Shown piece by piece: positions 535 through 52,200 of a DNA stretch of 64,000 nucleotides. Under the pieces are notes generated by a model. That model had not been told where the DNA came from. It did no database searches and saw only the letters and a program-made list of their open reading frames with translations. Made by a program: the position numbers and the translations under genes. Origin of the DNA: Orobanche coerulescens (lineage: Eukaryota; Streptophyta; Magnoliopsida; Lamiales; Orobanchaceae). Numbering within the stretch: the stretch's first letter is position 1; each line of letters begins with the position of its first letter. The DNA is taken from contig CM065814.1 in the NCBI GenBank assembly GCA_033398695.1, positions 101,062,501 through 101,126,500 of the forward strand, in the 5' to 3' direction.

Positions 535-764
535 TGTAATACCCGGTTGTAATTCAGTCATTATCATTCAGTAATATCATTCTGTAATTGTCACTCAGTA
601 ATTTTCACTCATTAATGATCATTCATCATTCATTTTCGTTCATTGTTTCCACCGTTTGGATGTAATTGTATCATATATCAATCATCATTCATCATCAATC
701 TAGTTGGAGAATTGTGTGGTGGTTATCATCGTTGCCATTTTCTTAGTGTGTTGTGTGTGAGGAG

Positions 765-1331
765 TAGCGCACGCTACGTACTCTCTTTAGCGTGCGCTAA
801 TTGAGTAAGAGTAGCGCACGCTACCTCTCAACACTAGCGCACGCTAGTATGTTTCAAGCAGGCAGTCCAGAAGGCACTGGACTGCAATTGGGTTGTAAGT
901 AGCACACGCTACGAATGGTAAGTAGCGCGCGCTAGTAGGCCGAAGTAGCGCACGCTATAGAGTCGGTGTAGCGCGCGCTAAGGACGAATCAGGCAGAGTC
1001 TAGTGGCTACTGGACTGCATTGGATAAATGCCTAACGTACGCTATGAGTGGTTTTTAGCGTACGCAAACGATGTAGTAGCGCACGCTAAATATTGTGTGT
1101 AGCGCGCGCTACCGAGATCAGATCAGAGAACAGGAGGTTTTGGACTCCAGTACTGGGCATCAAATAATTCGTTAGCGCACGCTAACCATGGATGTTAACG
1201 AACGCTAATGGCATGGTTGTAGCACACGCTACAAAAGGTACGTAGCGCACGCTACCGTGTTCGGACAGTGGGTACTGGACTACCCAAAACACCCGTTAGC
1301 GCACGCTAATAACTGGGGCTAGCGCGCGCTA
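765..1331 (+). promoter_or_regulatory. Array of 18 CpG palindromes upstream of the LTR TATA box
   Basis: Eighteen copies of a 12-bp near-palindrome, consensus TAGCGCACGCTA or TAGCGCGCGCTA, start at 765, 788, 812, 835, 900, 923, 946, 969, 1033, 1056, 1077, 1100, 1173, 1196, 1220, 1243, 1297 and 1320. Many neighbours are 20-24 bp apart, about two helical turns, often as pairs. Between groups lies a second motif, variants of TACTGGACT or CCAGTACTGG. The array stops 11 bases before the TATA box, so it fills the U3 enhancer position. Its role as a binding-site array is inferred. CpG density also makes it a likely methylation target. Confidence 0.85.
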
Positions 1332-1342
1332 AACTGGGATTA

Positions 1343-1352
1343 CTATAAATAG
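1343..1352 (+). promoter_or_regulatory. TATA box of the Tekay-like 5' LTR
   Basis: CTATAAATAG directly follows the palindrome array and is conserved in the 3' LTR (9,097-9,106). Transcription should start about 30 bp downstream, near 1,380. Confidence 0.8.
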
Positions 1353-1524
1353 GACAGTTCAGCCCTTACTTCGTCATTTATCATTTCTCTTCGTTTCTTC
1401 GGCAGTTTCGGGCGATTCCGGGCGATTTGGAGAGTGTTCTTCGAGGTGTAATCATCAATCATCATCTTCAAACTTATCTTTTGGATCAATCATCATTTCA
1501 TCATCCTCATCACATCTAATCAAG

Positions 1525-2659
1525 GTAATAATCTTCTTGGATCTAGAATTTCGAATTTTGGGTTTTTCCTTCCGATTTCTTCGTGTAAGCTTGGATTGTT
1601 GATGGAATATGTTAGATATGGATTATCTACCTTGGTTAAATGTTTCCCTACGGATTATTCAGTGTATATTTCGGATTACATAAATTTTGAGGTTTGATTC
1701 AAGAACCCCTTGGGGTTGACTTTGATGTTTTTGGGGGTTTTCGATTAGATGTTGTCGTTAACTCGAATTGTGGATTCCTATGGGATTATTGATATCACTG
1801 AAGTGTTTTGATGGTCCGAAATACTCATTTTGGTGTTGGTTTCGATATATTCGGGATTGGATATTTTCGAAGTTGTGTGGTTTGTTACGTATTCGTTAGA
1901 ATGCCCCAATGAGTTTGATTATCGTTGTATCGACTTTTGGGTTAGTCGTGTTTCGTTGCTTGATACGTGTATTGAACGGTTGTTGGTAATTATTGTTATT
2001 CAAGGTTGTTCGAGCGACCGGTATCTCGATTAGGACGTTGTTCGTGGAAGGACATTGTCATCGGTATTGAGTAAGTTAATTCTTACTCGGTTAAAAGGAT
2101 ATTCATTCCTTTTGTTGTTGGTCATTCATAATCATAACTCATTCATCATTGTATTAATCATATTGAGACTTGTAATTATCGAATAATCACTTCATTAACG
2201 AGGAACGGCGGTTCCAATCATTTCATTGAAACTATCAATCACTTCATTATCACTTTCATCTCGGTGAGTCATTCTTGACTTTGTCAGATTATTATTATTC
2301 ATTGATATTCATTATGGTCATTCTCGTTCATATGACCTTCTGGGTTCATATTGCGTGGCCGGGCGCGTAGGTGTGGAATTTTTAGTCGGGCACGCGATGG
2401 CCATGTATTGGGAGTGATACATTGGACTGTGCACACTGTAACGTACCTCCGTGAGACTAATTAGGTACAAGGACGGGTGTGTCCGGTCATCCGTCTTGTA
2501 CACTTGCACAGAACACTACGGGCGTACTATGATACCCCTCTTCAGCGTAATTCATAACTAAGGATATTCATAACTTCAGATATATCATGATTGTGTATTT
2601 TCAACCCTTGAGGATTGTTGTTCTGTGTAACTGACCCCGTTGGGGGATTTTGTTTTCAG
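1525..2659 (+). other. Possible leader intron within the LTR transcript
   Basis: A good donor (CAAG|GTAATAATC) and a pyrimidine-rich acceptor (TGTTTTCAG|GTCACGG) bound an AT-rich stretch without ORFs. The other long-LTR gypsy element has a similar AATCAAGGTAATCTTC donor at 44,659. Splicing is only a prediction. Confidence 0.3.
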
Positions 2660-3036
2660 GTCACGGCAAGGCAAAGGCACGGGAAGAGCATGCTGACGGC
2701 GAGGAGTCCCAGTGATACTAGTAGGGGCCCCAGTCATTCCGCATATTTCAGTCATTTCAGTCATTCTTATTTCTCTTCATTTGTTTTTCCGCTGCAAAAT
2801 TCCGTTTGAGATGTTATTTATTCAGGGTGGTATATTTTATCTTCATATAAAATATACTAGTATTCTGTATTGTCCTGGTGTATTGTACTTAAGCTCCTCA
2901 TCGGATTATTTGGTAATATAATGTGGTTCGGTACTACAATTATATTATTTAATCCATCAGTTTTCATTCGCCTGGTGGGTCCCAGTCGGGGGTCCACGGC
3001 ACTGTAATATCCGCCCAGTTTGGGGTGTTACAGAGT

Positions 3037-3048
3037 TGGTATCGGAGC
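3037..3048 (+). other. Primer binding site, initiator-Met tRNA type
   Basis: TGGTATCGGAGC begins five bases after the 5' LTR. It matches the usual plant gypsy site TGGTATCAGAGC except for one A-to-G change. The minus-strand chromovirus in this window has the same G variant. Confidence 0.85.
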
Positions 3049-3526
3049 GTGGTTTTGAATACTACCTTCCGAGTCATGTCTCATTTGAAATCATCGTCAT
3101 CAGACTAGTATCATTGGACTTTTGTGTCACGTGTGACCTGTGCAAATGCCGAGCCAATCAGACCAAGAACTGTAAGATTTCTAACGCCATGGTATAATTT
3201 CTGGCAAGAATCATTCATTCATAATTCACCAGTTAACAATCCCCAATCATCATTTTCATTTTGTCCAGGACGGTCATGTTAACTCGTTAATCACTCAATT
3301 CATTTCATTACTCAGTTGTTGATCAGGAAGATCATATCATTAATCTTGTTAACATGTACAAGATAATCATTTCAATAATTTCATCAGATAATCATGTCAC
3401 CTCAGTTAATCATTCATGTAATCACTGTGTTAGAGCGTGTATGCTCATTTTCATCATCTCATGTCATAATCATAACGTGATATTCATGCGGGAAATATAA
3501 TCATCATGTGACTTTCCTACTTCAGT

Positions 3527-4852
3527 ATGGAGAGGGCAAGAAGAGGACGTGGAGGACGAAGCCCTGGAGCGGGCCGAATCCCGATAACTCGTATGAATAC
3601 ACGTGCGAACGCGAGAAATAATGCTAATTCATCGGGTAGCGACGCTGCCACTCATTCACCTGGACGTGATCATTCACTATCGGGGAGTCGTACCCGGGAC
3701 ACGGCTCAGTCAGAAGGTGTCCGGGTTGACCCACTCGCTTTTATGCAGGGCATGATGACCCAAATGACCCAGATGGCACAGCTGATGGAGCCGATGCATA
3801 ACTCAGTCAATCAAAATCAACAGGCTCCTCCGCCGCCACCTCAGAGGCAAGAGAGGAATGTGAGCAGTATCATCGGCGACATCTCTCGCCAAAGGCCACC
3901 TACTTTTGAAGGCTCGTCTGAGCCGGCGGATATTATTCATTGGCTCGAACATTTCGAGAAGTTGTTTGCTATGGTAGAGTGTCCCGAAGGACACAAAGTT
4001 TCAGTTGCGGATTACTACCTGGGTAAGAGCGCACATTCTTGGTGGTTGTCGTTGAAGCCCACCGAAGGATCATGTACTTGGGATCAGTTCAAAACTCTCA
4101 TGATGGAGAGGTATTATCCAGCCCCACTCAGGGAAGCTAAATTGTCGGAATTACTCACTCCCGACCCCTCAGCAGACGAGGATGTTCTCGCCATTGCCGA
4201 AAAATTTCAGGAACTTCTTCCGTTCGCCTCATCTATCATTCATTCCGAGGCAGATAAGATTAAGTATTTCAGCAAGAGGCTGAAACCCCGTATGAGACTG
4301 CAGTTGCTTAATCATCATTGTACCACGTTGGCCGAATTCATTGAGAAAGCTCTTACCTATGAGCTTACTACTAAGGAGATTGCTAAGCAGCAACCTTCAT
4401 CTGCTAGCAAGAAGTCCAAGAACCGTAACCAGTCTGACGGCAGTCAGGCCACTTTCAAGAAACCTCGTGCGGGCTCTGCTTTTTCGGAGCGACCTCCTGT
4501 GACGCTTAAGCCCGCGGAATCTCAATCACGAGCGGCCAATTCGGCCATCACCTATTTTAACTGTGGGGATCTTGGTCATGTCAGCACCAAGTGTCCGAGA
4601 CAGTCTGTCACGTGCCATAATTGCGGAATTGTTTGGCATAAGGCCCGTTTTTGCCGTAGGGACTCCAAACCTACTCCGACGTCATCTCAGGTCCCGAAGC
4701 AATCAGCTGTCCAGAATCAAGCTACTCAGTCAGCGTCGTTTAAGACGACAGGAGCGAACAAGGGTGGATCCTTTAGCCATCAGACGGGAGCATCCGGTGC
4801 CGGGACTAGCAAGCCCCAGATTTATGAGATGAAGAAGGCCGATGATCCATAG
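3527..4852 (+). CDS. gag: Gag of the Tekay-like element
   Basis: A 441-codon gag that forms the particle and binds element RNA. The first ~110 residues are low-complexity (Arg, Gly, Ser, Gln and Pro runs). The retrotransposon gag domain (about residues 120-290) shows the typical W..L...F....V and F...YYP pattern. Two zinc knuckles follow near 343-375. The second, CHNCGIVWHKARFC, keeps its C-C-H-C ligands but has W where G usually precedes the His. In the first, the expected leading Cys is Tyr, so it probably binds zinc poorly. The ORF ends at TAG 4,850-4,852 and pol continues in the same frame, so this stop probably interrupts one gag-pol polyprotein. The start is the first ATG after a long leader. 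Confidence 0.92.
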   Translation: MERARRGRGGRSPGAGRIPITRMNTRANARNNANSSGSDAATHSPGRDHSLSGSRTRDTAQSEGVRVDPLAFMQGMMTQMTQMAQLMEPMHNSVNQNQQAPPPPPQRQERNVSSIIGDISRQRPPTFEGSSEPADIIHWLEHFEKLFAMVECPEGHKVSVADYYLGKSAHSWWLSLKPTEGSCTWDQFKTLMMERYYPAPLREAKLSELLTPDPSADEDVLAIAEKFQELLPFASSIIHSEADKIKYFSKRLKPRMRLQLLNHHCTTLAEFIEKALTYELTTKEIAKQQPSSASKKSKNRNQSDGSQATFKKPRAGSAFSERPPVTLKPAESQSRAANSAITYFNCGDLGHVSTKCPRQSVTCHNCGIVWHKARFCRRDSKPTPTSSQVPKQSAVQNQATQSASFKTTGANKGGSFSHQTGASGAGTSKPQIYEMKKADDP

Positions 4853-4858
4853 GCCCGA

Positions 4859-6730
4859 ATGATCTCAGGTATACTCGATATTCTATCTCAACTTGTGTGT
4901 ACCCTTTTTGATACTGGTGCATCACATTCATTCATTTCCGAGTCATGTTTGAGTAGACTACGTCTGGGTAGTGCTACTAGTTGTGAGCCTTATGTCATTG
5001 GTCTACCTGATGGTAGACGAATTATCGGAAATCATGAGATTCAGAACTGTCCGATTCAGCTTCATGGACGTGTATGGCCAACGGACCTAATCGTGGTAGA
5101 TTTGCCGAGAGACGACGTCATCTTGGGTATTGATTGGATGGATCGTCATGATGCCATCATTAGTGTCCGTAAGCGTATGGTCACTATTATTTCAGACGAT
5201 GGGGTCGAATGTGTGTTTCAGGGAGGTAATCCCGGCTGTTCTGGAAGAGTTATTAATTTGATGAAAGCGGTGAGATTACTCAATCAGGGGTGTGTTGGTT
5301 ATTGGTGCTATATGACCAAAACCGAGAAATCATCAGTAATGTTGACGGATATTCCAGTAGTGAGGGAATATGCCGATGTTTTTCCAGACGAGTTACCTGG
5401 TTTGCCTCCACAGAGAGATGTAGAATTCACGATTGAGTTGGAGCCCGGTACGTCCCCGATATCGAAGGCACCGTACCGAATGGCCCCGACCGAAATGCGG
5501 GAGTTGAAGAATCAACTTGAGGAGTTATTCGAGAAGGGTTATATCCGATCGAGTGCGTCCCCGTGGGGAGCACCAGTGTTGTTTGTCAAGAAGAAGGATG
5601 GTTCATTTCTCTTATGTATTGATTATCGGGAGTTGAACAGGGTGACGATCAAGAATAAGTATCCTCTACCCCGTATCGAAGATCTTTTGGATCAACTTCA
5701 GGGAGTTTCAGTATTTTCCAAGATCGACTTAAGATCTGGATATCATCAGTTACGGATTCGAGAGTCGGATATCGCGAGGACATCGTTTCGTACGCGCTAT
5801 GGTCATTATGAGTTCGTAGTTATGCCGTTCGGGCTAACTAACGCACCTACGGTATTCATGGAGCTAATGAATCGGGTTTTCATCGACTTTTTGGATCGGT
5901 TTGTGGTTGTCTTCATTGATGACATCTTGATTTATTCTCGTGACCGAGAGGAGCACGAGGTTCACCTTCATCAGGTTCTCGACGTGTTGAGACGAGAGCA
6001 ACTTTATGGAAAGTTTTCCAAATGTGAGTTCTGGATGTCCGAAGTAACTTTCCTCGAGCATGTAATTTCATCAGATGGAGTGCGTGTTGATCCTCAGAAG
6101 ACGGAGGCTATCCAAGATTGGTTACCTCCGAAGAATGTTAAGGAAATCCGAAGCTTTCTCGGATTAGCCGGTTATTATCGGCGGTTTGTGGAAGGATTTT
6201 CTAAAATCGCTCAACCCTTGACGAACTTGTTGCGGAATGACAATAAATACATGTGGTCTGACGCGTGTCAACGGAGTTTTGAGGAACTCAAGAGCCGGTT
6301 AATGTCAGCACCTGTACTTTCCTTGCCGCAAGGGACGGAAGGATTTGTGGTTTATAGTGATGCGTCCAGGCAGGGTCTCGGATGTGTACTCATGCAGAAC
6401 GGGAAGGTTATTGCCTATGCTTCACGGCAATTGAGACCTTACGAGGTTAATTATCCGACCCACGACTTGGATCTAGCAGCCGTGGTGTTCGCTTTGAAAA
6501 TTTGGCGTCATTACCTTTATGGCGTTACTTGTCAGATATTCACCGATCATAAGAGTTTAAAGTATATATTTACTCAGAAGGAGTTAAATATGCGACAGAG
6601 ACGGTGGTTGGAACTAATCAAAGATTACGATATCGAGATCCTTTACCACCCGGGCAAGGCGAACGTTGTCGCCGACGCCTTGAGTCGTAAGTCCGTTCAG
6701 GAGCAGATGCTTGCTCGTTTAACAGTTTAG
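4859..6730 (+). CDS. pol: Protease, reverse transcriptase and RNase H of the Tekay-like element
   Basis: 623 codons in the same frame as gag. The aspartic protease site DTGAS lies at about residues 18-22, with GIDWM further on. RT starts near residue 165 and has [15 protein letters not shown], a YRELN motif, the LRSGYHQ segment and the catalytic FIDDIL near 351-356. RNase H begins near 495 with YSDAS and includes a TDHKSLKYI segment. The ORF ends at TAG 6,728-6,730, and homologous pol sequence continues in frame to integrase, so the stop is a nonsense change. Alignment suggests each TAG was CAG, but that is inferred from the family pattern, not shown here. Confidence 0.93.
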
Positions 6731-6802
6731 AAGGAGCTTCAGCAGGAATTTCTTAGACCCGAGATCGAGGTCTGGCTTCAGCGAGTTCAGGGACAGCTTT
6801 GT

Positions 6803-8098: not shown

Positions 8099-8254
8099 CG
8101 TCCTGTACGAGTTTTAGAGTGGCGAATCAAACAGTTGAGGAACAAGACAATTCCTTTGGTCAAGATTCAGTGGTCTAGACACGGAGTCGAAGAGGCTACT
8201 TGGGAAACCGAGGAGGGTATGCGGGAGAATCATCCCGAGTTGTTTGACCCTTAG
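8099..8254 (+). pseudogene. Chromodomain-like C-terminal tail of integrase, cut off by an in-frame stop
   Basis: After the TAG at 8,096 the same frame stays open for 51 codons to TAG 8,252-8,254. It contains LRNKTIPLVKIQW and EEATWET, the signature of the divergent chromodomain at the integrase end of Tekay-type chromoviruses, which helps direct insertion to particular chromatin. It is probably not translated in this copy. Confidence 0.8.
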
Positions 8255-8275
8255 TTTCGGGGACGAAACTCTTTT

Positions 8276-8284: not shown

Positions 8285-8288
8285 TGTA

Positions 8289-10785
8289 TGTAATACCCAG
8301 TTGTAATTCAGTCATTATCATTCAGTAATATCATTCTGTAATTGTCACTCAGTAATTTTCACTCATTAATGATCATTCATCATTCATTTTCGTTCATTGT
8401 TTCCACCGTTCGGATGTAATTGTATCGTATATCAATCATCATTCATCATCAATCTAGTTGGAGAATCGTGTGGTTGTTATCATCGTTGCCATTTTCTTAG
8501 TGTGCTGTGTGTGAGGAGTAGCGCACGCTACGTACTCTCTTTAGCGTGCGCTAATTGAGTACGAGTAGCGCACGCTACCTCTCAACACTAGCGCACGCTA
8601 GTATGTTTCAAGCAGGCAGTCCAGAAGGCACTGGACTGCAGTTGGGTTGTAAGTAGCGCACACTACGAATGGTAAGTAGCACGCGCTAGTAGGCCGAAGT
8701 AGCGCACGCTATACAGTCGGTGTAGCGCGCGCTAAGGATGAATCAGGCAGAGTCCAGTGGCTACTGGACTGCATTGGATAAATGCCTAACGTACGCTATG
8801 AGTGGTTTTTAGTGTACGCAAACGGTGTAGTAGCGCACGCTAAATATTGTGTGTAGCGCGCGCTACCGAGATCAGATCAGAGAACAAGAGGTTCTGGACT
8901 CCAGTACTGGGCATCAAATAATTCGTTAGCGCACGCTAACCATGGGTGTTAACGCACGCTAATGGCATGGTTGTAGCGCACGCTACAAAAGGTACGTAGC
9001 GCACGCTACCGTGTTCGGACAGTGGGTACTGGACTACCCAAAACACCCGATAGCGCACGCTAAGAACTGGGGCTAGCGCGCGCTAAACTGGGATTACTAT
9101 AAATAGGACAGTTCAGCCCTTACTTCGTCATTTGTCATTTCTCTTCGTTTCTTCGGCGGTTTCGGGCGATTCCGAGCGATTTGGAGAGTGTTCTTCGAGG
9201 TGTAATCATCAATCATCATCTTCAACTTATCTTTTGTATTAATCATCATTTCATCATCCTCATCACATCTAATCAAGGTAATAATCTTCTTGGATCTAGA
9301 ATTTCGAATTTTGGGTTTTTCCTTTCGATTTCTTCGTGTAAGATTGGATTGTTGATGGAATATGTTAGATATGGATTATCTACCTTGGTTAAATGTTTCC
9401 CTACGGATTATTCAGTGTATATTTCGGATTTCATAAATTTTGAGGTTTGATTCAAGAACACCTTGGGGTTGTCTTTGATGTTTTTGGGGGTTTTCGATTA
9501 GATGTTGTCGTTAACTCGAATTGTGGATTCCTATGGGATTATTGATATCATTGAAGTGTTTTGATGGTCCGAAATACTCATTTTGGTGTTGGTTTCGATA
9601 TATTCGGGATTGGATATTTTCGAAGTTGTGTGGTTTTTTACGTATTCGTTAGAATGCCCCAATGAGTTTGATTATCGTTGTATCGACTTTTGGGTTAGTC
9701 GTGTTTCGTTGCTTGATACGTGTACTGAACGGTTGTTGGTAATTATTGTTATTCAAGGTTTTTCGAGCGACCGGTATCTCGATTAGGACGTTGTTCGTGG
9801 AAGGACATTGTCATCGGTATTGAGTAAGTTAATTCTTACTCGGTTAAAAGGATATTCATTCCTTTTGTTGTTGATCATTCATAATCATAACTCATTCATC
9901 ATTGTATTAATCATATTGAGACTTGTAATTGTCGAATAATCACTTCATTAACGAGGAACGGTGGTTCCAATTATTTCATTGAAACTATCAATCACTTCAT
10001 TATCACTTTCATCTCGGTGAGTCATTCTTGACTTTGTCAGATTATTATTATTTATTGATATTCATTATGGTCATTCTCGTTCATATGACCTTCTGGGTTC
10101 ATATTGCGTGGCCGGGTGCGGATGTGTAGAATTTTTAGTCGGGCACGCGATGGCCATGTATTGGGAGTGATACATTGGACTGTGCACACGGTAACGTACC
10201 TTCGTGAGACTAATTAGGTACAAGGACGGGTGTGTCCGGTCATCCATCTTGTACACTTGCACAGAACACTACGGGCGTACTATGATACTCCTCTTCAGCG
10301 TAATTCATAACTAAGGATATTCATAACTTCAGATATATCATGATTGTGTATTTTTAACCCTTGAGTATTGTTGTTCTGTGTAACTGACCCCGTTTGGGGA
10401 TTTTGTTTTCAGGTCACGACAAGGCAAAGGCACAGAAAGAGCATGCTGACGGCGAGGAGTCCCAGTGATACTAGTAGGGGGCCCCAGTCATTCCGCATAT
10501 TTCAGTCATTTCAGTCATTCTTATTTCTCTTCATTTGTTTTTCCGCTGCAAAATTCCGTTTGAGATGTTATTTATTCAGGGTGGTATATTTTATCTTCAT
10601 ATAAAATATACTAGTATTCTGCATTGTCCTGGTGTATTGTACTTAAGCTCCTCATCTGAGTAATGGTAATATAATGTGGTTCGGTACTACAATTATATTA
10701 TTTAATCCATCAGTTTTCATTCGCCTGGTGGGTCCCAGTTGGGGGTCTACGGCACTGTAATATCCGCCTAGTTTGGGGTGTTACA
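8289..10785 (+). repeat. 3' LTR of the Tekay-like element
   Basis: A 2,497-bp copy of 535-3,032 with the same ends, palindrome array (8,519-9,085) and TATA box (9,097-9,106). Followed by CTCAG, the right target-site copy. The ORFs within are LTR noise. Confidence 0.95.
8519..9085 (+). promoter_or_regulatory. Palindrome array in the Tekay-like 3' LTR
   Basis: The same spaced TAGCGCACGCTA series as in the 5' LTR, ending 11 bases before the TATA box. Several copies have base changes relative to the 5' LTR in both directions; for example some half-sites imperfect in one LTR are perfect in the other. Confidence 0.85.
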
Positions 10786-13482: not shown

Positions 13483-13489
13483 AAAGCTT

Positions 13490-13969: not shown

Positions 13970-14476
13970 TCAACGGCGATCGACACAAGGGCCGAACGAC
14001 CAAACGAAGATGCCAGATCAAGATCAAGTACCAAGCGATCGACGTCCAAGGCGATTGTCTGGTGGCACCTATCGATCGTCTCTAGTGCTCGACCAAGGAC
14101 GACCGCCTTATTCAACGTATGGAGCCAACATCCGTCGAGTCTGCGAAGACCGAATCTCGAGAAGAAGGCCCACGTGCAGATCCGCAAACGGCGCCGCAAG
14201 AGAAGGCTTTTTGACTCCAGCCCTTCACCAGCTGTTTGTGACAAGGACAGCCTTCCACCTACCGACATACCCGCAAAAGGCGCCCTAGGTGGGACCTCCC
14301 AAGACTGCGACAGGAGGCACGTATTATTTCCTCATTGGTTCCCGCAGACGGTGCCCTCATGTAGCAGCTGCGGACTTTAAGGAAACAGACCCACCTGTTG
14401 GGACGATCGCCCCGGTCGCCCTTAATGGCGTGTCAGAAGCATTAAATGAGCATTTAATGCAAGAAAGGCGATCGCC
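13970..14476 (+). promoter_or_regulatory. GCGATCGC-type palindrome cluster upstream of the Tat LTR TATA box
   Basis: Repeated GCGATCG and CGATCG motifs, some complete palindromes (GGCGATCGCC), occur upstream of CTATAAATA (14,512-14,520). The relative's LTRs have the same motif in the same promoter position. A regulatory role is inferred. Confidence 0.65.
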
Positions 14477-16342: not shown

Positions 16343-17264
16343 TGTTGTTGCCCGAAATATTATCCGGAGATGAATATTGCTGGAATGGTCGAGCAACAAA
16401 CAAAGTGCGAGAGCACGTCCGAGGGAATGGAAATAACACAAGATTTGCCGGGTTTGTTAGGCCCGGGCTTGAATGCTCTCGCGAGATGTTATTAATACAA
16501 ATATTCGGGGATACAAGTATTAATGTAAGAATGCGATTACAATGAGTCTAAAAGATCCTATTTATCTAGCTCTTGGGCGAAGCTTTGCGTGTTCTTGTTA
16601 AGCCGAGAGATAGCTGTTGCCAAGAGTGAGAAAGCCAAGTTCTGAGTAGAGAGAGAAAATTGGAGCCCAGTTTCTGCTCGAAAGCCAGGAAAAAACCCGA
16701 GAGTTGTACAAGTGCAGGGAGCCTTCTATTTATAGGGGCTGAGATTCCCTATTTACTGGCGGGCGATCGCCTTTTATGTAATATAATAAGGGGCGATCGT
16801 CTTTATGTCACATTTATCTGCCTTAAAGTCGCGAGCTGCTTGGCGGCCAATGTGCGGATCAATGAGGAGCCGGCACGCGTCTGGAGATTCTTTATCACGG
16901 CGGTCCCACTGTACAACTTTCGGCGGAGTGCAGCCGGTTGGTGGAAAGATCTTGTGGTGTGGTCAACGATCCATGTCTTGCGGCACCTTTTCCGGATCTG
17001 CATGTGGGTTCCTGCTTCGAGCTTCGGCCTTCGCCGACCGGACGGGCGATGGCTTCGCGTGGCATGAGGCGGTCGTATTTTGGTCGGTCACCAGGAGTCG
17101 ATCGCCAAGTACCGAGATACGATCGTCTTAGATGTCTATCGCTCGGCATCAGGACTTGTCCTGAGACCTTCGGTCGGCCAATCTGCCTTGGTTGATGGGC
17201 TCTGGCTCGGTCGCCCGGTCTCTGAGGCGATCGCTTGTTGAGACGTATAATTCTCGACACAACA
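16343..17264 (-). repeat. 3' LTR of the gag-only Tat element
   Basis: 922 bp. Plus-strand ends are TGTTGTTGCCCG and CTCGACACAACA. Contains the minus-strand TATA box at 16,726-16,735 and GCGATCGC palindromes at about 16,763, 16,792, 17,098 and 17,225. The many small ORFs here are LTR noise. Confidence 0.9.
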
Positions 17265-19513: not shown

Positions 19514-20443
19514 TGTTGTTGCCCGAAATATTATCCGGAGATGAATATTGCTGGAATGGTCGAGCAACAAACAAAGTGCGAGAGCACGTCCGAGGTAATG
19601 GAAATAACACAAGATTTATCGGGTTTGTTAGGCCCGGGCTTGAATGCTCTCGCGAGATGTTATTAATATAAATATTCGGGGATACAAGTATTAATGTAAG
19701 AATGCGATTACAATGAGTGTAAAAGATCCTATTTATCTAGCTCTTGGGCGAAGCTTTGCGTGTTCTTGTTAAGCCGAGAGATAGCTGTTGCCAAGAGTGA
19801 GAAAGCCAAGTTCTGAGTAGAGAGAGAGAAAATCGGAGCCTAGTTTCTGCTGGAAAGCCGAGAAAAAATCCGAGAGTTGTAAAAGTGCAGGGAGCCTTCT
19901 ATTTATAGGGGCTGAGATTCCCTGTTTACTGGCGGGCGATTGCCTTTTATGTAATATAATAAGGGGCGATCGTCTTTATGTCACACGGGTTGTCTGCCTT
20001 AAAGTCCGCGGCTGCTGCTGGCAGCCAGCTGTGCGGTCCAATGAAGAGCCGGCATGCGTCCTGAGTTGCTGTCACGGGCGGTCCCACTGTACAACTTTCG
20101 GCGGGTCTGTCGGTTGGTGGAAAGATGCTGACAGGCTGTGGTCAACGATCCATGTCTTGCGGCACCTTTTCCGGATCTGCATGTGGGTTCCTGCTTCGAG
20201 CTTCGGCCTTCGCCGACCGGACGGGTGATGGCTTCGCGTGGCATGAGGCGGTCGTCTTTTGGTCGGTCACCAGGAGTCGATCGCCAAGTACCGAGAGACG
20301 ATCGCCTTAGATGTCGATCGCTCGGCATCGGGACTTGTCCTGGGACCTTCGGTCGGCCAATCTGCCTTGGCTGCTGGGCTCTGGCTCGGTCGCCCGGTCT
20401 CTGAGGCGATCGCCTGTTGAGACGTATAATTCTCGACACAATA
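19514..20443 (-). repeat. 5' LTR of the gag-only Tat element
   Basis: 930 bp, direct copy of 16,343-17,264. Minus-strand TATA box at 19,909-19,918, upstream GCGATCG motifs at higher coordinates (for example near 20,279, 20,300 and 20,405). Confidence 0.9.
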
Positions 20444-26217: not shown

Positions 26218-27562
26218 TGTTAGGCGTAGTTTTATACGTTTATTTATCATTATTTTATATTTTTTTCTGATTAAATCTGCATAAATGAGCCTTTAATGCC
26301 CTATTATTTTATGTTTTGCAGGAAAATTGAGTCCGGAAGCTAAAACGAGGCAAAACGGGCGAAAACGGCGAATTTTGGCCGTGGGCCGCGGCACAGGGCA
26401 AGTGAGCCGCGGCACACGCAGAGGGCCGAGGCACCGAGTAGGCGTACTCTGAGCCGCGGCACAGCTTTGGTGAGCCGCGGCCCAGAAGAAAATCACAGCG
26501 CCCAGGTTTTAACCTGGAAGCCATGTGCCGCGGCACAGTTTAAGTGAGCCACGGCACACAAGGCGGTTTTGGTGTGCTCCGCGCGGATTTGGGCCGTTTT
26601 GAAGCCAGTTCTTGACCTACTCACACGGACGCGATTTGGAGGATGTAGGGAGCTATAAATAAGGGTTTAAGACCCTAATTAATCATCTTTTGATCTTTGA
26701 ATCTGGGAAATCTTGGAAGCTTGGAAAAAGGAGGAAGACAGAAGATTATCGCAGACGAGAGAAGCAGAAGAGACAAAAGGCAGAGGGCGGAAGCCAGAAG
26801 AACGGAGGAATCCGAGCTCTTCATCTGCGTTTGATTTTCATGCTTTTATTTATTTATTATGTATTATCATTATTTAGCATGTCAGGCTAAAACCTTGGAT
26901 CTAGGATTTTGATGAAACCTATGTTTTGACGGATTTGCTTGAGATTATCTATTTAATTCCCTTTTTGTTGAGTTTTTCCAATCGTGTTTAATGCTTTCAA
27001 TTATCTGGCCAATAGTTGTATTGTTTTAATCATTCAATTCGAATCGGGAGAGGAGAGTTGGTGAGGAACTATTGGTGAGGACCATTTTATTCTGTGAGAT
27101 AGGAATATACTCATAGGAACTACGTGGCCTTTTGGAGATTTTATGCTTTTTGCCTATTGACGAATTAATTCACCTAGGGATAGAGTGCGTTATTCGACTT
27201 TAGAAAAATCTATTGACCTCGGGAGAGGCGGTAGAGTATATTAGCAATCTTCGCCTTCAATAAATTTGGAAAATCACTAACTACAGATAATCGAGAGTAA
27301 ATTCGGATAAACCGAGGTGGATTCAGAATCCTAGACTTATTTATCATTTGATTCTCTTTCTTCAAGCAATCGTTTTTATTGTTAGTTCTTTTATTAATTT
27401 TCTTTAGTAATTAATTGCTACCCAAAGTTCGATTGTTCAAATAAAACTGGAATACACAAAAATCGGTAATTAGTGATTCAGTCCTCGTGGGAACGATACT
27501 CACTCATCACTTTATTACTTGTATACGATAACGTGCCCTTGCGTTAACGAAAAATCGCAACA
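26218..27562 (+). repeat. 5' LTR of the Athila-like element
   Basis: 1,345 bp, TGTTAGGCG to ATCGCAACA. Palindrome array 26,385-26,555, TATA box CTATAAATA at 26,653-26,661. Confidence 0.95.
26385..26555 (+). promoter_or_regulatory. GCCGCGGC palindrome array in the Athila-like 5' LTR
   Basis: Seven copies of TGAGCCGCGGCACA variants around the 8-bp palindrome GCCGCGGC, about 100 bp upstream of the TATA box. Each core contains two CpGs. Repeated in the 3' LTR and in the internal region. Confidence 0.8.
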
Positions 27563-34096: not shown

Positions 34097-35443
34097 TGTT
34101 AGGCGTAGTTTTATACGTTTATTTATCATTATTTTATATTCTTTTTCTGATTAAATCTGCATAAATGAGCTTTAATGCCCTATTATTTTATGTTTTGCAG
34201 GAAAATTGAGTCCGGAAGCTAAACGAGGCAAACGGGCGAAAACGGCGAATTTTGGCCGTCGGCCGCGGCACAGGGCAAGTGAGCCGCGACACACGCAGAG
34301 GGCCAGCAGGCACCAGAGTAGACTGTACTCTGAGCCGCGGCACAGCTTTGGTGAGCCGCGGCCCAGAAGAAAATCACAGCGCCCAGGTTTTAACCTGGAC
34401 GCCATGTGCCGCAGCACCGTTTAAGTGAGCCGCGGCACACAAGGCAGTTTTGGTGTGCTCCGCGCGGATTTGAGCCGTTTTGAAGCCAGTTCTTGACCTA
34501 CTCACACGGACGCGATTTGGAGGATGTAGGGAGCTATAAATAAGGGTTTAAGACCCTAATTAATCATCTTTTGATCTTTGAATCTGGGAAATCTTGGAAG
34601 CTTGGAAAAAGGAGGAAGACAGAAGATTATCGCAGACGAGAGAAGCAGAAGAGACAAAAGGCAGAGGGCGGAAGCCAGAAGAACGGAGGAATCCGAGCTC
34701 TTTATCTGCGTTTGATTTTCATGCTTTTATTTATTTATTCTGTATTGTCATTATTTAGCATGTCAGGCTAAAACCTTGGATCTAGGATTTTGATGAAACC
34801 TATGTTTTGACGGATTTGCTTGAGATTATCTATTTAATTCCCTTTTTGTTGAGTTTTTCCAATCGTGTTTAATGCTTTCAATTATCTGGCCAATAGTTGT
34901 ATTGTTTTAATCATTCAATTCGAATCGGGAGAGGAGAGTTGGTGAGGAACTATTGGTGAGGACCATTTTATTCTGTGAGATAGGAATATACTCATAGGAA
35001 CTACGTGGCCTTTTGGATATTTTATGCTTTTTGCCTATTGACGAATTAATTCACCTAGGGATAGAGTGCGTTATTCGACTTTAGAAAAATCTATTGACCT
35101 CGGGAGAGGCGGTAGAGTATATTAGCAATCTTCGCCTTCAATAAATTTGGAAAATCACTAACTACAGATAATCGAGAGTAAATTCGGATAAACCGAGGTG
35201 GATTCAGAATCCTAGACTTATTTATCATTTGATTCTCTTTCTTCAAGCAATCGTTTTTATTGTTAGTTCTTTTATTAATTTTCTTTAGTAATTAATTGCT
35301 ACCCAAAGTTCGATTGTTCAAATAAAACTGGAATACACAAAAATCGGTAATTAGTGATTCAGTCCTCGTGGGAACCATACTCACTCATCACTTTATTACT
35401 TGTATACGATAACGTGCACTTGCGTTAACGAAAAATCGCAACA
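34097..35443 (+). repeat. 3' LTR of the Athila-like element
   Basis: 1,347 bp. GCCGCGGC array 34,262-34,436 and TATA box 34,534-34,542. Differences from the 5' LTR cluster in the array. Confidence 0.95.
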
Positions 35444-38067: not shown

Positions 38068-38068
38068 G

Positions 38069-43480: not shown

Positions 43481-44195
43481 CGTAAGAACTGTAATATCCG
43501 CAGTTTTCGATTTCCGGTAATTTCTTTTTTTCGGCGGTAGTCTGTTTTGACGACTCGCTCATGTCCGTTTCGTCATTCTGAGAATGATTAATTCTACACT
43601 TTTTGACATCCGAGTTCGTTTCGGAGTCGTTTTGTTGAGTTCCGTGCTTTTTAACGACTTTTCCGCACTTGAGTTCGGTTCTTGCGAATCTCGTTCGAAA
43701 CTGCTGTTTCGAGTTCCCCGTAAGTCCGGTTAACTTTGTTAGACGTGTTGTGAACTCCCGTTTGGTTATTCGATCACGTATCGTGATTTCCGGGTGTTTT
43801 GGGCCGTTTTGTAATTTCTTGAAAGTTACGGGTGTCCGTATCTGTAATTGTCGTCTCGACCCGTTTCTTGGTCGCGTATGATTGAATATGGTATTATGTT
43901 TTCATTTCGGTCGTTGATGTCGTCAGGAACTTTTAAATCGTGTTCGTTAAAATGCGTTTTGTAATCGGGTCGTCGAGCCACAGCGGTTCTTGGGGCCCAG
44001 CCGGACGGTTGCGGGGGGCCGGACGATTGCAGGCACCGGCCGGGGCCAGGTGCGCGAGAACCGGCGTAAGCGCCTTCTGGCCGGAAAAGTGCTGCGCGCT
44101 AACCGGGCAGTGTAGCGTCTGTGCCGGGTGGCTAGCGTCTGTTCTCGGGCACTGGCGATGGGGTTTCGAGGTTGGACTCGGTCATGATCGGCGAG

Positions 44196-44480
44196 TAGCG
44201 CACGCTACGCGGCGTAGCGCGCGCTAGTCGGCGGCGTAGCGCCGCGGCTGTCGGCCGGCTAGCGTCGTTACTGGCCGGCGATTCGATCCAGTGGCTCTTT
44301 GGGCGGAGTCGGCTAGCGTCGCGAGCTTCCGGCCGTAGCGCCGCACGCTAGCGGGCTCAGTCGGCAGTTTGGTCGGCGGGGTTGGTCGGTGATGCGGCTC
44401 GTGTGGGCCACTGGCCGAGGTGCTCGGCCGATCTGGCCGATAGCGCCACGCTAGTCCGGAAGGCTAGCGCCACGCTAGTC
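44196..44480 (+). promoter_or_regulatory. TAGCGCACGCTA palindromes upstream of the TATA box
   Basis: TAGCGCACGCTA at 44,196 and TAGCGCGCGCTA at 44,215 are identical to the Tekay-like motif. Several further copies have one or two extra bases in the core (TAGCGCCACGCTA near 44,440 and 44,463). In the 3' LTR the last copy is perfect (50,233-50,244). Ends a few bases before a TA-rich TATA element. Confidence 0.75.
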
Positions 44481-45550
44481 AGCGATATATATATGGTGGC
44501 AGTCACATTTCACTTCGTTTTCATTTCCTTCCTTCTCCATCCGCGAGTGGCGATTCATGGGCGGCGAAGCCATGTTGTTTAACAACAAATCCATGAAGTC
44601 CTTGAGTTCATAACATCAATCGATCGTCCGTTATCAACCTTTGATTCAAATAATCAAGGTAATCTTCTTAGAACCCTAATTTCGTGAATTTGGGGATTTT
44701 TGCATTTTTAAATCCGATTCATTCCGTGTTGTTGATTAATTCATGATGGGTATGATTAATCTTGATAGTATTCTTGTGTTTAACATCATTTAATCCATTG
44801 TTCTTCGTCGAATCGAAGTATATTTCTTGATTTCCTTGAATTGACTTTTTGGGGGATTTGTCCCGATCTCGTTTTCATCCGTTTTGATGGATCGATTATG
44901 GTTAAATGATGTTGTTAAACATATTCTATGGATTGTATATCCATATTTCAACTTGGAATTCCGTTTTCGGGTTTTGTGGACGGACGAATCGTGTTCTTGA
45001 CCGTTTTGGAAATCCTTGAACCTTCGTCATTTGTTCTTTGAATTCGGCTTTGGGTCGTACTTTGGAATTCATTTTTATTGTTATTGTCCTCCGAAGTTTA
45101 TCATAGTGAGTTGGCTTACGGTGGAGTCGGCGGGTTCGTAGTCGGTTCGGGCCAACCTACTTCGGTCGATTCTCCGCGTTGTTCTTATTCGAGGCAAGTA
45201 CCTTGTCCATACATTTCTTGTTTCGCGGATATGATGATTGGTGATCGTCTTGGTTTGCTTGTTTGTTTGAAATGAGTTTTCAAAAGTTTTGGTTAGCCTC
45301 GTTAAAGGCCTCTTTCAAAACCGTGTGTGTTTTGTGATTGGTGTGGTTCGTGAATAACCATGTGAATTCTATGTATATGCTTGGTGTTCATGTTGCACTT
45401 GGTATTGTGTGTGGACGTATAATATTTCATTTCGGTGCGTTGTGAATTGACGTGGTGTTTTGCTAAGTGTTTGATGCCTCTGGGCGAATTGTTTGAATAT
45501 CCTTGATGTGATATGTTATTTGTGTGAATGTGTGGATATGGTTGAAGGTC

Positions 45551-48049: not shown

Positions 48050-48900
48050 GTGGTTCGTATGAATCCCCCTCGTTTGGCCCGTGCTGCGGATGCTTTAGGT
48101 GGGATGGTTGGCTTTTCAGTTGGAAAAGATTTTGAGATAGTTGATTGTCGAGAAGAACGTAAGGTTCCGGTAGCTCAGTATCTTTTCGACAAAGATGCCG
48201 CTAGGCGGTGGGAGGCTATTAAGCCTCGAGATCGCGTTGTCACGTGGGCGAGTTCCAGGAATTCATGAGAGATGAGTTTTGTCCGAACCGATCAGAAATC
48301 AGAGGATTAATGAATTCTTTTCGCGAAACCGCGAGGATGTACCATTGTCTCAAGCTATTATTGATTTTAGCAAGCGGCTCGGCTATGTGCAAAATCAAGT
48401 AAGGACAGAGGAGGACAAGATTTGTCATTTTAGTAGGCGGATGAAGCCGGAGATTCGCCAGTACATGGCGGGTCTCGCTTGTACTTCCTTGAGAGATTAT
48501 CGAGAATAGGGCGTTAGCCTATGAGCTATCCAGTTATCGGCCAGAGTATGTCGACTCGAAGAAGCAGAAAACCGTTGGGAACTCTTCGGGAAATCGGAGT
48601 GGGCCCCTTGAGGTTGGGACTTCGTCTCGTCATCCCAAAATGGTTCCTAGATCGCGTGATCGGAGGAGTAGTACCCCTGCGGTAAGTAATGTGAGCACTT
48701 CAAGATATGTTATAAGCGTAGTCGAGCGGGCCATCTGCGAAGAATTGTCGTTCACCGTTAGTCAATTTGTTTGAGTGCGGCCGGGTGGGTCACCGATCCG
48801 TACATTGCGAGACGGTGGTGAGAGGTTTGGGGATCGAGGTTGCGTCTCTGCTCCGAAAGGACACGGAGATGCCTAGGGTGGTTTTGAGGATTTCGGCGTA
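48050..48900 (+). pseudogene. Broken gag of the 3-kb-LTR gypsy element
   Basis: Fragments in shifting frames: KVPVAQYLFDKDAARRWEAIKP (48,160-48,230), SQAIIDFSKRLGYVQNQVRTEEDKI (48,340-48,420) and HFSRRMKPEIRQYMAG, all gag core motifs. A zinc-knuckle relic, FECGRVGHRSVHCE, lies near 48,773-48,815, its first Cys out of frame. At least two frameshifts; no pol follows. Confidence 0.75.
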
Positions 48901-49246
48901 GTCCGAATTATTTATGATTACCCTTGTGGATCGTTTTGTGTTTATTCCCTGTTTTCTCGCTGTGCGTGTTTCTTGTAACAAGTACTTTGTGTTTTGTGAT
49001 TGTTTGGATAATTGATTTGATTGTATTATCTGTTTGATGACGCTTGTCACTTGTTGGTGTTATTATGTCTCTACCGGCGACGTTGTGTTGGTCGTCGTGG
49101 AGCGTGTTTACACGCCGTATACTCCTTTGCGTTGTTTGTAACATTTCGCCGTTGGGCGCTAGTTACGCATTCTTGTGTATCTCGTTGAGTTTTTCCTGGC
49201 GGAATATTTCTTCTCCCTACTTGTTTTAAGTTTCGGGACGAAACTT

Positions 49247-49260
49247 CTTTTAAGGAGGGT
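49247..49260 (+). other. Polypurine tract of the 3-kb-LTR gypsy element
   Basis: TTTTAAGGAGGGT just before the 3' LTR at 49,265. The context TCGGGACGAAACT is shared with the Tekay-like element's tract (near 8,257-8,270), supporting relatedness. Confidence 0.75.
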
Positions 49261-49264
49261 AGAA

Positions 49265-52200
49265 TGTAATATCCGCAGTTTTCGATTTCCGGTAATTTCT
49301 TTTTTTCGGCGGTAGTCTGTTTTGACGACTCGCTCATGTCCGTTTCGTCATTCTGAGAATGATTAATTCTACACTTTTTGACATCCGAGTTTGTTTTGGA
49401 GTCGTTTTGTTGAGTTCCGTGCTTTTTAACGACTTTTCCGCACTTGAGTTCGGTTCTTGCGAATCTCGTTCGAAACTGCTGTTTCGAGTTCCCCGTAAGT
49501 CCGGTTAACTTTGTTAGACGTGTTGTGAACTCCCGTTTGGTTATTCGATCACGTATCGTGATTTCCGGGTGTTTTGGGCCGTTTTGTAATTTCTTGAAAG
49601 TTACGGGTGTCCGTATCTGTAATTGTCGTCTCGACCCGTTTCTTGGTCGCGTATGATTGAATATGGTATTATGTTTTCATTTCGGGTCGTTGATGTCGTC
49701 AGGAACTTTTAAATCGTGTTCGTTAAATGCGTTTTTGTTAATCGTCGTCGAGCCACCTGGCGGTTGCGGGGCTGGCCGGACGGTTGCGAGGAGCCGGACG
49801 ATTGCGGGCACCGGCCGGACAGGTGCGCGAACCGGCGTAAGCGCACGCTTCTGGCCGGAAGGCTGCCTTCTAACCGGTAGGTGTAGCGTCTGTTGCAGGT
49901 AACTGCGTCTGTTCTCGGGCACTGGGCGATGGGGTTTCGAGGTTACGGACTCGGTCATGATCGGCGAGTAGCGCACGCTACGCCCGGCGTAGCGCGCTAG
50001 TCGGCGGCGTAGCGCCGCAGCGTCGGCCGGCTAGCGTCGTTACTGGCGGGCGATTCGATCCGATGGCTCTTTGGGCCAGTCGATTAGCGTCGCGAGCTTC
50101 GGCCGTAGCGCTAGCGGGAGTCGGGTCGGCGAGTTTGGTCGGCGGGGTTGGTCGGTGATGCCGGCTCGTGTGGGCCACTGGCCGAGGTGCTCGGCGATCT
50201 GGGCCGATAAGCGCACGCTAGTCCGGAAAGGCTAGCGCACGCTAGTCAGCGATATATATATGGTGGCGATCACATTTCACTTCGTTTTTCATTTCCTTCC
50301 TTCTCCATCCGCGAGTGGCGATTCATGGGCGAAGCCATGTTGTTTAACAACAAATCCATGAAGTCCTTGAGTTCATAACATCAATCGATCGTCCGTTATC
50401 AACCTTTGATTCAGCGAATCAAGGTAATCTTCCTTAGAACCCTAATTTCGTGAATTTGGGGATTTTTGCATTTTCGTCCGATTCGTTCCGTGTTGTTGAT
50501 TAATTCATGATGGGTATGATTAATCTTGATAGTATTCTTGTGTTTAACATCATTTAATCCATTGTTCTTCGTCGAATCGAAGTATATTTCTTGATTTCCT
50601 TGAATTGACTTTTTGGGGATTTGTCCCGATCTCGTTTTCATCCGTTTTCGATGGATCGATTATGGTTAAATGATGTTGTTAAACATATTCTATGGATTGT
50701 ATATCCATATTTCAACTTGGAATTCCGTTTTCGGGTTTTGACGGACGAATCGTGTTCTTGACCGTTTTGGGAAATCCTTGAACCTTCGTCATTTGTTCTT
50801 TGAATTCAGCGGCTTTGGGTCGTACTTTGGAATTCATTTTCATTGTTGTTATTGTCCTCCGTAGTTTATCATCGTGAGTTGGCGTTCGGTGGAGTCGGCG
50901 GGTTCGTAGTCGGTTCGGGCCAACCTACTTGGTCGATTCTCCGCGTTGTTCTTATTCGAGGCAAGTACCTTGTCCATACATTTCTTGTTTCGCGGATATG
51001 ATGATTGGTGATCGTCTTGGTTTGCTTGTTTGTTTGAAATGAGTTTTCAAAAGTTTTGGTTAGCCTCGTTAAAGGCCTCTTTCAAAACCGTGTGTGTTTT
51101 GTGATTGGTGTGGTTCGTGAATAACCATGTGAATTCTATGTATATGCTTGGTGTTCATGTTGCACTTGGTATTGTGTGTGGACGTATAATATTTCATTTC
51201 GGTGCGTTGTGAATTGACGTGGTGTTTTGCTAAGTGTTTGATGCCTCTGCGAATTGTTTGAATATCCTTGATGTGATATGTTATTTGTGTGAATGTGTGG
51301 ATATGGTTGAAGGTCTACGGTGGCACATGGCATGTGATCATGTGGCCAGGATGCAACAAGTGATTGATCCAACCGTGAGAGCCTGAGATAATCTACGGTG
51401 GCACATGGCATGTGATCATGTGGCCAGGATGCAACAAGCGATTGATCCAACCGTGAGATGTGTGTGATTTGTTTCGCTAGCCACTCGGGAGGGTCCTTCG
51501 AGGCCTCGAGTGGGATGTCGGTGGTAGCGTCCGGTCTGGCGATGCGCGTGCGTGATTATGTTTCGTTGATTTTACGTCCGTTGAGGACACGTGATGTTGG
51601 GCTTTGACCGTAAATTGTTGGTGGTTTCTATTTGCGAAAACAAAACATTTGGGCCGTGACCTATTGATTTTGGAAAGAGAAGGATTTTATAATCCTAAAT
51701 TGTTTTCTATTAAAACTCTCGATGGCATTTTAAAGCTGTTTTGTAAATTGTTTCCCTTATTAGCTATCTTTAGGTTTTGGAAATGTTTACTCAAACTCTT
51801 GCCTCGGGAAGTACTTTTCTTTACGTTTGGATCATTGAGGATTCCCGATTATTATTGTTCTTGGAACTTGTATTGTATGGCTCGTATTTTTGCACTTGTA
51901 CTTGCACTAGCAAAGCGGTGGAGTTTTGCTAACCCCAGTATTCGGGGTGGATGTCTATTTTGCATTCGGGTTTTGGAGCATAGCACGGAGTCGGCACGAA
52001 GGATGATGAATGATGAAGCGATACTAATCACCACGAGGATCCGTTCTTTGTCGTATTGGTCTAGTTGTATTTTCTTTTTCATTTGCAGATTTGTTTCCCG
52101 TTGTACGGGTGTGGTTGTATTTTGACCCCTGCGTGGGCATGAGTTGTATTTGAGCTGTATGTATTTGTTGTAAGACCAAATCGGTCTACTGAGTCATTTT

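What the first reader, a model, noticed from the sequence alone, without database searches (positions are those of the whole stretch)
535..50261. Four LTR families carry family-specific CpG palindrome arrays directly upstream of their TATA boxes
The Tekay-like (TAGCGCACGCTA, 765-1,331, TATA 1,343), 3-kb-LTR gypsy (same motif, 44,196-44,480, TATA 44,485), Tat (GCGATCGC, 13,970-14,476, TATA 14,512; also both minus-strand LTRs) and Athila-like (GCCGCGGC, 26,385-26,555, TATA 26,653) elements share the layout but mostly not the motif. All cores are self-complementary and contain CpG. Convergence on one architecture in mostly unrelated families suggests a common constraint: binding by dimeric host factors, cruciform or hairpin formation, or a methylation-sensitive switch. 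I know of no named description of this as a shared module; that is from memory, not a search.
Basis: partly seen in the sequence, partly recalled or inferred. Interest (0 to 1): 0.8.

Follow-up and report, generated by a model that had tools for sequence, protein, structure and literature searches.

The report
Million-copy palindrome grid beside retrotransposon promoters
In this plant genome, several unrelated retrotransposon families carry short mirror-image DNA sites, repeated at a fixed spacing upstream of their promoters, which looks like a shared control switch for the elements.

Summary
TAGCGCACGCTA occurs 1,017,744 times in the 3.65-Gb assembly; the reversed control 56 times. Sites sit on a 23/24-bp grid with random spacers. 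The dyad step is nearly always pyrimidine-purine. In 7 of 11 non-alignable LTR groups TATA starts 11-13 bp after the last site. Gaps between clusters follow the DNA helical repeat.

Corrections: the '3-kb gypsy' LTR is related to the LTR of an element with Tekay-like pol, and its window copy is eroded. The Tat repeat is CGATCG, not GCGATCGC. One array was missed (37,836-38,054).

New: one site class and grid occur in Ty1/copia and Ty3/gypsy LTRs; one 21-bp motif pairing occurs in Athila-like and Tekay-like LTRs; Tekay relatives ~92% alike internally carry three different arrays.

Best reading: helically phased promoter-proximal sites for dimeric, probably host, DNA-binding factors, exchanged as U3 modules. 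The layout has a named precedent in Sirevirus copia LTRs (PMC2829016). The factor, its function and any methylation gating are inferred.

The parts
535..3032 (+). 5' LTR of the Tekay-like element (3' LTR 8289-10785)
   Evidence: LTR pair 97.4% alike; gypsy gag/PR/RT/integrase domains between them
765..1331 (+). TAGCGYRCGCTA array, 18 sites in four quartets and a final pair at 21-24 bp, TATAAA at 1344
8519..9085 (+). the same array in the 3' LTR, 18 sites, TATAAA at 9098
13977..14474 (+). Tat-like LTR piece with five CGATCG (one inside GCGATCGC), TATAAA at 14513
   Evidence: maxrep6 5, 0/500; positions; TATA
16343..17262 (-). Tat-like LTR, five CGATCG; pairs with 19514-20441
   Evidence: fixed-gap 8-mer test negative
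19514..20441 (-). second Tat-like LTR, five CGATCG
   Evidence: fixed-gap 8-mer test negative
26385..26558 (+). Athila-like 5' LTR array: GCCGCGGCACA and variants, seven sites, three pairs 21 bp apart; TATAAA at 26654
34262..34439 (+). Athila-like 3' LTR array, six sites with variants; TATAAA at 34535
   Evidence: (second setting), sequence, TATA
44087..44477 (+). eroded TAGCG array of the 3-kb-LTR element, 5' LTR; TATATA at 44486
   Evidence: no enrichment of perfect palindromes
49839..50244 (+). the same in the 3' LTR; TATATA at 50253

Best explanation
These are promoter-proximal arrays of binding sites for dimeric DNA-binding factors, most likely host proteins, that drive or license transcription from the LTR. 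SHOWN by sequence: the main site class is T-N-R-CG-YR-CG-Y-N-A with a pyrimidine-purine dyad step; sites stand 23/24 bp apart; clusters are separated by gaps phased to the DNA helical repeat; TATA is commonly in register with the grid; sites are conserved between related LTRs while spacers are not; copia and gypsy LTRs use the same class and grid. Other motifs have their own spacing (GCCGCGGCACA, 21 bp), and closely related elements differ in the whole block that holds array and TATA, so it behaves as an exchangeable module. INFERRED: dimers occupy neighbouring sites and cooperate towards the TATA complex; the factor is host-encoded; CpG makes binding sensitive to methylation, so that silenced copies do not soak up the factor.
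For: Grid: 272,422 pairs at 23 bp, control 0; 233,643 facing half-sites at 24 bp, control 1,253; 51,496 over periods 25-35, control 47,906; 135,987 over periods 12-22, control 27,192; the TTACG variant 40,759 at 23/24 bp, control 609. Dyad YR 77 of 77 and 135 of 136; purine-first centres genome-wide only 5,787 + 6,038. Sites 89% alike, spacers 26.0% against 25.6% shuffled. Divergence between ten pairs of related LTRs: site CpG 62/1211, site other 175/2425, spacer CpG 206/770, spacer other 2088/7672. Helical phasing of long gaps: best period 10.4 bp, 0/2000 and 1/2000; 10.2 bp in 11 non-alignable groups, 15/5000 and 20/5000. TATA 11-13 bp after the last site in 7 of 11 groups; CGCTA-N11..13-TATAWA 55,187 + 60,172, control 6,574 + 6,088. 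Copia and gypsy share class and grid with unalike spacers (272/1000). GCCGCGGCACA 21-bp pairs in Athila-like and Tekay-like LTRs, 52,012 + 52,455 genome-wide, control 0 + 1. Block exchange.
Against: No binding, expression or methylation data. Four of 11 groups lack the 11-13 bp TATA register (38, 41, 56, none within 100), among them the copia one. The distance control CGCTA-N14..24-TATAWA did not complete, so the TATA register is tested genome-wide only against the reversed pattern. The 5' and 3' LTR of the Tekay element differ as much in sites (6/228) as in spacers (25/1030), so nothing protects sites after insertion, and one cross-copy comparison gives a weaker contrast (sites 37/205, spacers 105/342). 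A 115-aa and a 109-aa ORF in the element are unassigned. Over a million sites would swamp most transcription factors. Sense-strand polarity of the dyad (CA) is unexplained.
Confidence: 0.6

Rival explanations
1. RNA or cruciform structure: the palindromes act in the U3 part of the transcript (3' LTR) or as extruded DNA, for example as precursors of small RNAs, as argued for maize Sireviruses.
For: Predicted RNA folds of eight arrays have z from -8.7 to -1.8 against dinucleotide shuffles; any palindrome array would give this. The CCGTGTC..GACACGG units (L012) have arms long enough for hairpins. Passages of PMC10760457 report small RNAs over Sirevirus palindromes.
Against: The usual dyad CA is not self-complementary and would break pairing at the centre; 5-bp arms with a 2-base centre are poor hairpins; a 10.2-10.4-bp period and a fixed distance to TATA fit duplex DNA.
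Confidence: 0.13
2. Sites for an element-encoded, sequence-specific anti-silencing protein acting in trans, as VANC does for VANDAL transposons.
For: Motif arrays in noncoding DNA that change between related elements are the VANC pattern (PMC5735166 passages); here related elements carry different arrays.
Against: In the Tekay-like copy the ORFs of 130 aa or more are gag-pol only; the same class serves copia and gypsy elements. Another element could still supply the protein.
Confidence: 0.1
3. Sites by which a host repressor or the DNA methylation machinery recognises the elements, maintained because copies cannot lose them without losing promoter function.
For: CpG in all 29 scanned arrays, fitting a methylation target; tandem repeats are known silencing targets (PMC5735166 passage).
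Against: A pure target of silencing should be lost, yet sites are conserved about four to five times better than spacers and kept in TATA register.
Confidence: 0.1
4. Passive tandem amplification: slippage or template switching multiplies a short unit, with no function.
For: The Tekay array aligns with itself at 66-67% with a ~135-bp offset; linkers share a second inverted repeat.
Against: Spacers are at random identity while sites are 89% alike; sites diverge more slowly than spacers between related LTRs; copia and gypsy share grid but not spacer sequence.
Confidence: 0.04

Closest known systems
Sirevirus 'repeated motif' (RM) boxes (PMC2829016: passages and section 9 seen)
   Same: High-copy palindromic CpG boxes clustered in the LTR a short distance upstream of TATA, family-specific sequence, divergent flanks.
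   Different: Described in Ty1/copia Sireviruses and stated absent from the classic elements compared there; CGG-CCG core. Here mostly Ty3/gypsy, other cores, a 23/24-bp grid with TATA register. I saw no fixed spacing reported in the parts read.
Palindrome-rich cis-region of maize Sireviruses and small RNAs (Bousios 2016: recalled and as described in PMC10760457 passages; PMC4728375 not held)
   Same: Palindrome clusters in the regulatory part of the LTR.
   Different: That work stresses hairpins and siRNAs; PMC10760457 says maize Ty3 elements generally lacked an obvious structure peak. No small-RNA data here.
VANC target arrays of VANDAL transposons (PMC5735166 passages; PMC10398659 abstract)
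   Same: Dense short motifs in noncoding DNA that differ between related elements and are thought to co-evolve with a binding protein.
   Different: DNA transposons, element-encoded protein, non-palindromic motifs in one orientation.
Tnt1 superfamily U3 modules (PMC1838419 passages)
   Same: Related elements that differ mainly in U3; modular evolution.
   Different: Copia; the word stem 'palindrom' does not occur in that text.

Membership tests
Sirevirus RM boxes | repeated palindromic motif clustered upstream of the LTR TATA box | tested here: met
Sirevirus RM boxes | CGG-CCG core | tested here: not met
   cores are TAGCGYRCGCTA/TTACGTACGTAA, CCGCGG, CGATCG; one RM in that paper (Tnd-1) also lacks it
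Sirevirus RM boxes | boxes define predicted CpG islands | not tested
   CpG is in the sites, no island prediction was run
Sirevirus RM boxes | carrier is a Sirevirus (Ty1/copia) | tested here: not met
   window carriers with domains are gypsy type; the copia carriers L028 and L015 were not assigned to a copia lineage and could be Sireviruses
VANC-type anti-silencing targets | motif arrays in noncoding DNA differing between related elements | tested here: met
VANC-type anti-silencing targets | element encodes the binding protein | tested here: inconclusive
   no ORF of 130 aa or more besides gag-pol in the Tekay-like copy; 115- and 109-aa ORFs unassigned; other copies not examined
VANC-type anti-silencing targets | loss of methylation on binding | not testable with these tools
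   no methylation data
Tekay clade (535-10785) | gypsy gag, PR, RT, RNase H, integrase in that order | tested here: met
Tekay clade (535-10785) | integrase chromodomain | tested here: inconclusive
   chromodomain-like stretch recognised by eye (recalled) after an in-frame stop; no HMM run on it; one similar protein lists PF00385 (P0094)
Tekay clade (535-10785) | placement in an RT tree | not tested
3-kb-LTR family as relative of Tekay-type elements | LTR similar to the LTR of an element with Tekay-like pol | tested here: met
   L011: Tekay-like pol 69.8% over 3,064 bp, abutting an LTR 67.9% like the first 320 bases of the 3-kb LTR
Tnt1-like U3 modularity | similar element, different U3 | tested here: met
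   L012 and L016 against the window element: internal 92.2% and 92.8% over 1,244 and 305 bp, LTR ends 81-89%, middle of U3 unaligned

The most novel reading that the evidence does not exclude
A genome-wide shared promoter code: a few palindrome-plus-spacing signatures, each read by a dimeric host factor, have been adopted by unrelated retrotransposon superfamilies and passed between them as U3 modules, so that one factor faces over a million sites whose CpGs let methylation hide the silenced copies.
Probability: 0.33. Interest if true: 0.88.

Novelty: new variant of a known kind. Interest (0 to 1): 0.74.

Why it matters
If right, the promoter grammar of a large part of a plant's retrotransposons can be read from sequence and tested with synthetic promoters. 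It would give one molecular handle on how unrelated TE families can become active together, and a direct test of whether CpG methylation keeps a factor from being titrated by very many decoy sites. It also extends the Sirevirus palindrome story from one copia genus to Ty3/gypsy.

Tried and rejected
Rejected: perfect palindromicity as the rule at the dyad (the step is YR, CA in sense at 54 of 77 sites and 106 of 136). Rejected: the CA centre as plain CpG decay, because CA outnumbers TG 54:6 and 106:5 in sense; the polarity stays unexplained. Single departures inside sites are also more often G>A (25) than C>T (13) of 52. Recalled leads only, not tested: NAC/VOZ-like half-sites (TTACGT), Z-DNA in alternating purine-pyrimidine cores, 24-nt siRNA length as the cause of the grid.

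Led nowhere: species identification (the 120 listed protein hits are 41-68% identical and spread over many dicots); the 12-mer letters in papers (7 papers, none on plant LTRs by title); PMC4728375 is not held.

Limits and dropped rows: the random sample is 20 of 60 planned 10-kb stretches, all within the first 100 Mb of contigs C1-C14. The array scans skip half-sites of one or two letters, which removes pure A/T and pure G/C palindromes. L023 is listed twice among the 29 arrays; some of the 29 are short satellite-like repeats (L025 36 bp, window 40856 22 bp). The L019 repeat pair reads as coding by eye and is not an LTR. Five of the 16 representatives proved alignable with others and were dropped. 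L006 overlaps L005 and was left out of totals. Of the ten repeat pairs in the random loci, six pass the strict fixed-gap test in at least one copy at <=1/60 (L010, L011, L015, L022, L026, L027) and four do not (L012 4/60 and 2/60, L018, L019, L025); L018 and L025 are positive only in the variable-gap scan, and the L022 piece tested is not itself an LTR.
Full report
WHAT WAS CHECKED. The window is C14:101,062,501-101,126,500 of an unnamed 3.646-Gb genome. Self-comparison gives the LTR pairs 535-3032/8289-10785, 26218-27562/34097-35443, 43485-46551/49261-52308 and, on the minus strand, 16343-17262/19514-20441. Pfam finds gypsy-type gag, protease, RT, RNase H and integrase parts in the first element and a gypsy-type gag in the Tat-like one.

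THE OBSERVATION. The Tekay-like arrays are real and stronger than stated: 18 sites per LTR in four quartets (steps 23,24,23 / 23,23,23 / 23,21,23 / 23,24,23) plus a final pair, then TATAAA 12 bp on. Perfect 12-bp CpG palindromes are 4 (5' LTR) and 3 (3' LTR) against 0.12 in shuffles, with nothing unusual downstream of TATA. The Athila-like sites are GCCGCGGCACA in pairs 21 bp apart. The Tat-like LTRs repeat CGATCG five times each, not GCGATCGC, and fail the fixed-gap 8-mer test. The 3-kb LTR has few intact sites and no enrichment of perfect palindromes; its 3' copy passes and its 5' copy fails the fixed-gap test for a CpG repeat. Its two LTRs differ by 13-19% over 43885-44485 against 0-2.6% elsewhere, partly through small indels in and around sites; this could be real instability or long-read assembly error.

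SCALE. TAGCGCACGCTA occurs 510,633 + 507,111 times, its reversed control 23 + 33. In 200 kb of random loci plus the window, a scan that knows no motif (5-bp half-sites of three or more letters, gap up to 10, three or more in 500 bp) found 29 arrays, 29 with CpG, against 0, 0, 1, 1, 0 in shuffles. Of 3,537 single inverted pairs under the same filter, 846 have CG in the half-site. The 29 are not independent: LTR pairs count twice and only some eight or nine half-site types are involved. Twelve of 29 lie within 60 bp of a TATA-like box, 2.9 expected. Of ten repeat pairs in the random loci, six pass a strict per-LTR test and four do not (details in Tried and rejected).

GRID. Whole-genome counts: 272,422 pairs of TAGCGNNCGCTA at 23 bp (control 0); 233,643 facing half-sites at 24 bp (control 1,253); 51,496 over the eleven periods 25-35 (control 47,906); 135,987 over the eleven periods 12-22 (control 27,192). 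The tool warns that counts of repeats are lower bounds. Within the Tekay array the 18 sites are 89% alike and their spacers 26.0%, against 25.6% for shuffled letters. Between ten pairs of related LTRs, sites differ at 62/1211 CpG and 175/2425 other positions, spacers at 206/770 and 2088/7672. CpGs in sites, expected to decay fastest if methylated, are the best kept positions there. Against this, the two LTRs of the Tekay element itself differ as much in sites (6/228) as in spacers (25/1030), as expected if selection acts before insertion, and the window element against L006 gives a weaker contrast (37/205 against 105/342).

DYAD AND POLARITY. With exact half-sites the centre is pyrimidine-purine in 77 of 77 and 135 of 136 sense-oriented sites; genome-wide, centres beginning with a purine number 5,787 + 6,038. 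CA is the usual centre in sense. This favours a bendable step under a protein dimer over self-pairing.

PHASING AND TATA. Distances of 40-130 bp between clusters gather near 45, 53, 65, 73, 82, 97 and 105; the best period between 8 and 14 bp is 10.4 (R 0.454; 0/2000 and 1/2000 under two jitter nulls). Some of those 16 representatives are alignable; with 11 non-alignable groups the best period is 10.2 (15/5000 and 20/5000). In 7 of those 11 groups TATA begins 11-13 bp after the last site; the others have 38, 41, 56 and none within 100. Genome-wide, CGCTA-N11..13-TATAWA occurs 55,187 + 60,172 times against 6,574 + 6,088 for the reversed pattern; some listed hits are plain AT repeats, and the count at other distances did not complete. 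The arrays were chosen because they hold the motif, mostly at 23/24 bp, so their short distances are not independent evidence; their TATA positions and long gaps were not selected.

SHARING AND SWAPPING. L028 and L015 carry copia gag (PF14223) and LTR arrays of TAACGTACGTAA/TTACGTACGTAA mostly at 23/24 bp; L011, with a gypsy-type RT, carries the same. L028 and L015 belong to one LTR family (73%), so this is one copia family, of untested copia lineage. L028 and L011 share the step order 23/24-52-23/24-18-23/24 while their spacers align no better than shuffled ones (272/1000). The hybrid site TAGCGTACGTAA links the two half-site types. Pairs of the TTACG type at 23/24 bp number 40,759 against 609. 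GCCGCGGCACA in 21-bp pairs occurs in the Athila-like LTRs, in their relative L026 and in L016, a Tekay-like LTR; genome-wide 52,012 + 52,455 against 0 + 1, some places being counted on both strands. CCGTG..CACGG arrays occur in Tekay-like L012 and L025 and in L010, which has a gypsy-type gag and another primer-site pattern. L012 and L016 are 92-93% like the window element in the internal pieces compared (1,244 and 305 bp) and 81-89% at both LTR ends, yet the middle of the LTR, TATA included, does not align and bears other palindromes. So the array is a replaceable block. The 3-kb family is tied to Tekay-type elements through L011, whose Tekay-like pol abuts a related LTR.

MECHANISM. The simplest reading is an enhancer-like set of sites for dimers on preferred faces of the DNA, ending at the TATA box. 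That the factor is a host protein is inferred from use by copia and gypsy alike and from the lack of any ORF of 130 aa or more besides gag-pol in the Tekay-like copy. Methylation gating is a guess that would explain why CpG is so general and how a million sites can be tolerated. RNA structure is not excluded: folds of eight arrays have z from -8.7 to -1.8, but any palindrome array gives that.

KNOWN OR NEW. Bousios and colleagues described palindromic RM boxes that form CpG islands upstream of TATA in Sirevirus LTRs (PMC2829016: passages and section 9). PMC10760457 (passages) notes that TE cis-regulatory regions are often arrays of sometimes palindromic repeats, and that maize Ty3 elements generally lacked a structure peak. 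VANC targets (PMC5735166, passages) and Tnt1 U3 modules (PMC1838419, passages) are parallels for array turnover. My searches (motif letters) list no paper that by its title or abstract start describes a gypsy or cross-superfamily case; they cover an open-licence library only and the listings were capped. Hence: new variant of a known kind, with a sharper grammar than in the texts seen here.

Noticed in passing
window 37836-39306: CACGATCGTG-like array before TATAAA 38071, inside or next to a 412-bp tandem repeat whose units each carry a TATAAA.
   Followed up: partly
window 25082-25352: Array of CACACGAT..CGTGTG palindromes inside a self-complementary stretch (25234-25352 matches its own reverse complement at 86%) with no TATA within 300 bp found.
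   Followed up: no
window 41688-43247: Two minus-strand ORFs; the first has a MULE transposase domain, the second gave no Pfam hit.
   Followed up: no
window 847-1296: Linkers between the Tekay quartets share a second, CpG-free inverted repeat (GCAGTCCAG..CTGGACTGC and variants).
   Followed up: no
window 43885-44485 against 49661-50252: LTR divergence peaks at 13-19% in the array region against 0-2.6% elsewhere in the same LTR pair: instability or assembly error.
   Followed up: partly
window and L009-L028: CpG observed/expected is 1.04 in the window and 0.98 in 200 kb of random loci, not depleted although many plant TEs are CpG-methylated.
   Followed up: no
TAGCG arrays in 22 loci: The dyad is mostly CA in sense orientation (54 of 77 and 106 of 136), and departures inside sites lean to G>A over C>T (25 against 13 of 52): a strand polarity without explanation.
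   Followed up: partly
window 8096-8245: An in-frame stop precedes a chromodomain-like stretch, so this Tekay-like copy has a broken integrase C-terminus (chromodomain recognised by eye).
   Followed up: no
L025 3134-3390 and 8987-9240; L022 4642-10000: A 36-bp ACGGC..GCCGT tandem repeat, and a 2.9-kb direct repeat holding gag-like ORFs.
   Followed up: no
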